From the IMG/VR virus record IMGVR_UViG_3300037586_002164, positions 1-33,432 of that record: DNA of 33,432 nucleotides. One strand, written 5' to 3'. This document shows, in pieces, positions 27,602-27,684 of this stretch (the stretch's first letter is position 1; each line of letters opens with the position of its first letter). The notes beneath the pieces are model-generated. The model made no database searches, had not been told where the DNA came from, and saw only the letters and a program-made list of their open reading frames with translations. The translations under genes and the position numbers were made by a program. This DNA comes from a virus.

Positions 27602-27684
27602 TTCGGACCGCTAGTAGCTCGATTGAGAGTTGCGGAGAGACCCTCGGCAGGTTGTGGGTATCGAGGCCCACCTAGCGGTCCGAA
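27602..27684 (+). ncRNA. tRNA-like cloverleaf in leader of the terminase operon
   Basis: A 13-bp perfect outer stem (TTCGGACCGCTAG, 27602-27614, with CTAGCGGTCCGAA, 27672-27684) encloses three arms with tRNA spacing. Taking the inner 7 bp as acceptor stem (27608-27614/27672-27678): T8-A9 at 27615-27616; D stem GCTC/GAGT (27617-27620/27627-27630); anticodon-type arm 27632-27636/27644-27648 with one G-G mismatch and a 7-base loop; 5-base variable loop AGGTT; T stem GTGGG/CCCAC (27654-27658/27667-27671). Departures from a working tRNA: T loop is 8 bases (TATCGAGG), D loop is short and lacks GG, position 33 is A, no CCA or normal discriminator. Likely a degenerate or mimic tRNA in the 5' leader. 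Confidence 0.55.

What the first reader, a model, noticed from the sequence alone, without database searches (positions are those of the whole stretch)
27602..27684. Degenerate tRNA-like cloverleaf in the 5' leader of the terminase/virion operon
All four helices, T8-A9, the 5-base variable loop and the T-arm sequence sit at tRNA spacing, but D-loop GG, U33, CCA and the normal T-loop length are missing, and the acceptor stem is extended to 13 bp. It begins about where transcription should start and ends 16 bases before the terS-like ATG. It could be a tRNA mimic that recruits a host factor, an RNase P/RNase E site that sets the mRNA end, or a former tRNA gene. It may also overlap the packaging site.
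Basis: partly seen in the sequence, partly recalled or inferred. Interest (0 to 1): 0.8.

Follow-up and report, generated by a model that had tools for sequence, protein, structure and literature searches.

The report
tRNA-shaped start of phage late mRNA
A marine phage, predicted to carry modified (2-aminoadenine) DNA, has a tRNA-shaped RNA segment that cannot work as a tRNA just downstream of a predicted late-gene promoter, probably an old tRNA reused to protect the 5' end of the messenger RNA.

Summary
The cloverleaf is real. At 27602-27684 the minimum-energy RNA fold is a four-helix cloverleaf with a 13-bp closing stem (z -4.8). A covariance model that I built from 48 bacterial tRNAs matches it over all tRNA positions with 28.2 bits (E 5.5e-7). 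The next best place in the window scores 9.4 bits and real class II tRNAs left out of the model score 24-41. Leaving out the acceptor stem, the interior ranks first of 33,375 windows and no shuffle of 32,000 approaches it. Rfam and ARAGORN miss it; Infernal's speed filters lose even an identical copy.

It is not a working tRNA: GG of the D-loop, U33 and CCA are gone, the T-loop has 8 bases, the anticodon stem has a G-G mismatch. Yet 26 of 27 stem pairs are intact, and it sits between a promoter-like site and a Shine-Dalgarno sequence. The only other copy found (IMG/VR contig 3300006738_000084) is identical, and the nearest relative (TerL 72%) lacks it, so covariation cannot be tested.

Best reading: a tRNA-derived structure exapted as the 5'-terminal leader of the late (terminase) mRNA, most likely an end stabiliser and insulator. 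The tRNA-likeness is shown; the function is inferred.

The parts
27569..27597 (+). promoter-like site TTGACT-17-TATGAT with TG near the -10; predicted +1 about 27603-27605
   Evidence: consensus scan, 10 of 12 matches; 1.6 sites expected by chance in that region, so not proof
27602..27607 (+). 5' strand of the 6-bp extension (TTCGGA), pairs with 27679-27684
27608..27614 (+). acceptor-like stem, 5' strand (tRNA positions 1-7, CCGCTAG)
   Evidence: covariance alignment
27615..27616 (+). U8 A9
27617..27630 (+). D-arm: GCTC / GAGT, loop GATTGA with two bases deleted in the region of GG(18,19)
   Evidence: pair probabilities 0.79-0.90
27632..27648 (+). anticodon-like arm: GCGGA GAGACCC TCGGC, G29-G41 mismatch, A33 instead of U33
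27649..27653 (+). variable loop AGGTT
27654..27671 (+). T-arm: GTGGG TATCGAGG CCCAC, one A inserted in the T-loop
27672..27678 (+). acceptor-like stem, 3' strand (CTAGCGG)
27679..27684 (+). position 73 U, then CCG (not CCA) and AA, paired with the 5' extension
27691..27694 (+). Shine-Dalgarno-like GGAG in the 16-base linker before the ATG
   Evidence: sequence
27701..28096 (+). first ORF of the late operon (131 aa), orphan, weakly like Terminase_2; homologue only in L004
28074..28619 (+). small terminase-like gene (PF03592, 26.0 bits against cut-off 26.1)
28616..30118 (+). large terminase
   Evidence: phrog_2

Best explanation
The segment is a tRNA-derived, non-decoding cloverleaf that has been exapted as the 5'-terminal leader of the phage late mRNA. 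RNA polymerase starts at about 27603-27605, so the transcript opens directly into a 10-13-bp blunt stem that carries three tRNA-shaped arms, followed by a 16-base linker with the Shine-Dalgarno sequence. The closed 5' end would keep pyrophosphohydrolase and RNase E-type nucleases off the message and keep upstream sequence from pairing with the ribosome-binding site, prolonging the life of the terminase/virion message. Shown: the fold, the tRNA-like architecture and its statistical significance, the loss of decoding features, and the position. Inferred: descent from a tRNA, transcription start, and the stabilising role.
For: tRNA covariance model 28.2 bits, E 5.5e-7, runner-up 9.4; score range of untrained class II tRNAs 24-41; interior-only test, 0 of 32,000 shuffles and first of 33,375 windows; MFE z -4.8; autonomous domain in all mRNA contexts folded. 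Stems are kept (26 of 27 pairs, including the 6-bp extension that a tRNA does not have) while loop bases needed for decoding and tertiary folding are lost (alignment). That is the pattern expected of a structure kept for its stems, not of a working tRNA. Intact viral tRNAs exist with this D-arm and this variable loop/T-arm combination once the two loop indels are put aside (45 contigs). The promoter-like site ends 5 bases upstream. 5' stem-loops as mRNA protectors are established in bacteria (Emory et al. 1992, cited in PMC7509114).
Against: Only one sequence: the second copy is identical and the 72% TerL relative has nothing there, so neither covariation nor selection is shown. The promoter is a consensus match only. 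A plain hairpin would stabilise a 5' end as well, so this role does not explain the tRNA shape. In longer folds the Shine-Dalgarno region pairs with downstream coding sequence, so insulation of the ribosome-binding site is not shown. The sequence-only tRNA model does not detect the element, so common descent is not proven by sequence.
Confidence: 0.45

Rival explanations
1. Neutral tRNA pseudogene: a phage-borne tRNA gene that lies downstream of a promoter by accident and is decaying.
For: tRNA-like in shape and partly in sequence, small indels in two loops, CCG for CCA, absent from the nearest relative; the phage carries no other tRNA gene.
Against: Random decay should hit stems as often as loops, yet 26 of 27 pairs stand and a perfect 6-bp extension is added (chance about 4^-6 for six flanking pairs). 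It sits exactly between promoter-like site and ribosome-binding site.
Confidence: 0.2
2. tRNA mimic that binds a host or phage factor (RNase P, tRNA-modifying enzyme, EF-Tu, synthetase) to process or regulate the late mRNA.
For: Overall tRNA architecture incl. T-stem, variable loop and most T-loop bases. RNase P cuts several mRNAs and phage RNAs, in many cases at tRNA-like structures (PMC4919922).
Against: A14, G18, G19 and normal T-loop length are lost, so the tRNA elbow should not form normally; no CCA; predicted leader is 0-3 bases and paired, a poor RNase P substrate.
Confidence: 0.2
3. The information is in the DNA: a packaging (pac/cos) or regulator-binding site near the terminase genes whose inverted repeats happen to fold like a tRNA.
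For: Adjacent to the small-terminase genes; inverted-repeat-rich intergenic region.
Against: A DNA site needs no tRNA-like arms; the score on tRNA positions is far beyond a chance by-product; the nearest relative with the same gene order lacks it.
Confidence: 0.07
4. Coincidence: an arbitrary stable 5' hairpin that merely resembles a tRNA.
For: Given the 13-bp stem, 0.5% of shuffled interiors fold into three arms of tRNA-like lengths; similarity by sequence alone is matched elsewhere in the window and is not detected by a sequence-only model.
Against: Structure and sequence together: E 5.5e-7, and 0 of 32,000 shuffled interiors within 15 bits.
Confidence: 0.08

Closest known systems
Bacterial and phage tRNA genes (Rfam RF00005)
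   Same: Acceptor, D-, anticodon- and T-arm, U8 A9, 5-base variable loop AGGTT, GG-UUCGA core of the T-arm, D-arm TAGCTC-ATTG-AGAG; full-length covariance match.
   Different: No GG in the D-loop, A33, G-G mismatch, 8-base T-loop, no CCA, 6-bp extended acceptor; lies in an mRNA leader.
5'-terminal mRNA-stabilising stem-loops (ompA type)
   Same: Stable stem at or near the predicted 5' end, followed by a linker with the ribosome-binding site.
   Different: Here the stem carries a tRNA cloverleaf; stabilisation is not measured.
tRNA-like mRNA leaders that bind synthetases (thrS operator of E. coli; from my own knowledge, papers that name it are listed)
   Same: tRNA-like RNA upstream of a start codon.
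   Different: thrS mimics the anticodon arm of tRNA-Thr and autoregulates its own synthetase; no synthetase gene or intact anticodon loop here.
tRNA-like structures of plant RNA viruses (PMC5723415)
   Same: A viral RNA that imitates tRNA.
   Different: Those are at the 3' end of RNA genomes and interact with CCA-adding enzyme and synthetases; this is at the 5' end of an mRNA of a DNA phage.

Membership tests
functional tRNA | cloverleaf with 7/4/5/5-bp stems | tested here: met
   (one G-G mismatch in the anticodon stem)
functional tRNA | recognised by standard tRNA finders (ARAGORN, Rfam gathering score) | tested here: not met
   found by ARAGORN only at -ps85, together with four chance hits
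functional tRNA | U33, G18 G19, 7-base T-loop | tested here: not met
   sequence and alignment
functional tRNA | free 3' end with CCA or position open for CCA addition | tested here: not met
   CCG, paired in the stem extension
tRNA-derived element / pseudo-tRNA | significant match to tRNA in structure and sequence together | tested here: met
   28.2 bits, E 5.5e-7; control interior test
tRNA-derived element / pseudo-tRNA | identifiable parent tRNA | tested here: inconclusive
   No GTDB representative genome has a tRNA with this exact 5' half (two coding hits). Intact viral tRNAs share the D- and T-arms; the best, a tRNA-Trp in L121, has 53 identities over 76 columns, but the set was chosen by pattern
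5'-terminal mRNA-stabilising structure | structure starts within a few bases of the transcription start | tested here: inconclusive
   promoter-like site only
5'-terminal mRNA-stabilising structure | longer mRNA half-life | not testable with these tools
   needs experiment
RNase P substrate | cleavage at the 5' side of the acceptor stem | not testable with these tools
   needs in vitro assay
phage packaging site | genome ends or TerS binding at the element | not testable with these tools
   contig without known ends

The most novel reading that the evidence does not exclude
A DNA phage uses a whole tRNA-shaped domain as a dedicated 5' cap-like module of its late mRNA, recognised by a tRNA-binding host factor or shielding the message from 5'-end-dependent decay. 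I found no described case of this in the searches made.
Probability: 0.2. Interest if true: 0.75.

Novelty: new variant of a known kind. Interest (0 to 1): 0.5.

Why it matters
Phages carry many tRNA genes, usually explained by decoding. A tRNA that has lost decoding but kept its stems at the start of the late mRNA would show a second fate, reuse as an mRNA leader, and would be a compact natural test of how tRNA shape or stem stability at a 5' end controls decay. It also shows a blind spot: tRNA-derived leaders like this one are invisible to filtered Rfam and ARAGORN searches.

Tried and rejected
Rfam and ARAGORN gave nothing. I did not take this as evidence against, because my own tRNA model with default filters misses the identical copy in L002 and finds it with filters off. 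One viral-contig pattern was wasted by a wrong gap length. The acceptor-stem pattern found only L002's contig and an unrelated tandem hairpin in L067. The near-exact element pattern found only L002's contig. DNA similarity in phages and plasmids: none. Relatives by TerL (63 loci) and by the first late ORF: only the identical contig and L004 carry the leader region with recognisable gene order. tRNA-like leaders in 22 other relatives, filters off: none. An attP origin is unlikely: a complete cloverleaf, and no integrase among the genes scanned, though the contig may be incomplete. Reading through ATG 27593 as an N-terminal extension of the first ORF is unlikely: that ATG lies in the -10 region, and L004 has an in-frame stop just before the homologous start. 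The structure model of the first ORF product is too poor to use (pLDDT 54).

Full report
Context. The window is a virus record of 33,432 bases, a podovirus-like phage with early genes on the minus strand (11907-26774) and late genes on the plus strand (27701 onwards and 32-11896). It has PurZ, a YfbR-like HD protein, a MazG-like protein and a family A DNA polymerase, so its DNA probably contains 2-aminoadenine in place of adenine (PurZ, DatZ, MazZ, DpoZ; PMC8342488, PMC8599892, listed). The finding lies at the end of the 0.9-kb divergent intergenic region.

The observation. The 83 bases fold as a cloverleaf in MFE and centroid, -44.3 kcal/mol, z -4.8, and the fold persists as an independent domain with 36-136 bases of downstream mRNA. 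Given the 13-bp stem, only 0.5% of shuffled interiors give three arms of tRNA-like lengths.

Is it tRNA-like beyond chance? Similarity by sequence alone is modest: 1.5 in 1000 shuffles reach it and three other places in the window do as well, and a sequence-only tRNA profile does not find it. Sequence and structure together are decisive. A covariance model from 48 tRNAs of E. coli and two Bacteroidota genomes matches it end to end, positions 1-73, 28.2 bits, E 5.5e-7, with 9.4 bits for the next place in 66.9 kb of both strands and at most 10.4 bits in 93 kb of related phage DNA. A hairpin alone is worth at most about 8 bits to this model (ranks 3-4). Class II tRNAs not used for the model score 24-41 bits, trained class I tRNAs 52-85. 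A separate script that leaves out the acceptor stem gives the interior 7.5 bits against a best of -7.9 in 32,000 shuffles and -14.4 for the next independent place among 33,375 windows.

What kind of tRNA relative? tRNA position 1 is 27608. Kept: U8, A9, D-stem, A21, variable loop AGGTT, T-stem, U54, U55, C56, G57, A58, C61. Lost: A14, G18, G19, U33, one anticodon-stem pair, T-loop length (an A inserted), CCA (CCG here). Gained: six pairs beyond the acceptor stem. It cannot be a working elongator tRNA. With the two loop indels put aside, its D-arm and variable loop/T-arm combination occurs in intact tRNAs of 45 viral contigs (44 of 45 called as tRNAs by ARAGORN); the closest is a tRNA-Trp in L121 (53 identities over 76 columns), but that set was selected by pattern and the parent is not established. 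No tRNA with the same exact 5' half was found in the collection of 84,980 species genomes.

Conservation. Only IMG/VR contig 3300006738_000084 (L002, L065, L066, L110) carries it, identical. L004 (TerL 72%, first late ORF 43-49%) has the same gene order and a similar repeat-rich intergenic region but no such element; a TATAAT lies just upstream of its start codon, although no full consensus promoter was scored there. Other TerL relatives are at about 62% identity or less (most below 50%) and those searched with filters off have no tRNA-like leader. So gain in this lineage or loss in L004 cannot be told apart, and covariation is untestable.

Mechanism. A promoter-like site ends at 27597, placing the start of transcription at the foot of the stem; the Shine-Dalgarno GGAG lies in the 16-base linker. 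Stems are preserved where loops are not. I therefore favour an exapted structural leader that protects the 5' end, over a decaying pseudogene, a factor-recruiting mimic, a DNA site or coincidence. The functional step is inference.

Verdict. Observation confirmed and strengthened; interpretation partly supported; a new variant of a known kind (tRNA-like mRNA leaders) in a setting for which I found no description in the literature searches.

Noticed in passing
window 27240-27540; inverted similar copy at 23690-23858 and similar stretch 23917-23986; L004 2480-2820: Intergenic array of TACGTA-type inverted repeats (19-bp perfect arms 27244-27262 / 27509-27527) around a long purine/pyrimidine hairpin and GC-rich GCCCCGTCCTCCGGGGGC-type hairpins, present twice in the phage and in similar form in L004; perhaps an origin, regulator-binding or terminator region.
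   Followed up: partly
window 26813-26898: 25-bp tandem repeats, each with TTGACA on the minus strand near an early promoter-like site; the near-identical phage L002 has one copy fewer.
   Followed up: partly
window 17175-17218 and 4347-4390: 44-bp stretch at 98% identity shared by the MazG-like gene region and the internal virion protein gene.
   Followed up: no
window 15386-20828: PurZ, HD (YfbR-like), MazG-like and family A polymerase genes: a likely 2-aminoadenine (Z) genome; PurZ is only about 35-37% identical to its best matches among known phages.
   Followed up: partly
window 27701-28096 and 28074-28619: Two successive small genes both with (weak) Terminase_2 similarity before the large terminase.
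   Followed up: partly
L067 1500-1577: Tandem perfect hairpins GGACCGCTAGCCTC...GAGGCTAGCGGTCC upstream of a small ORF in an unrelated phage contig; shares the acceptor bases, apparently by chance.
   Followed up: partly
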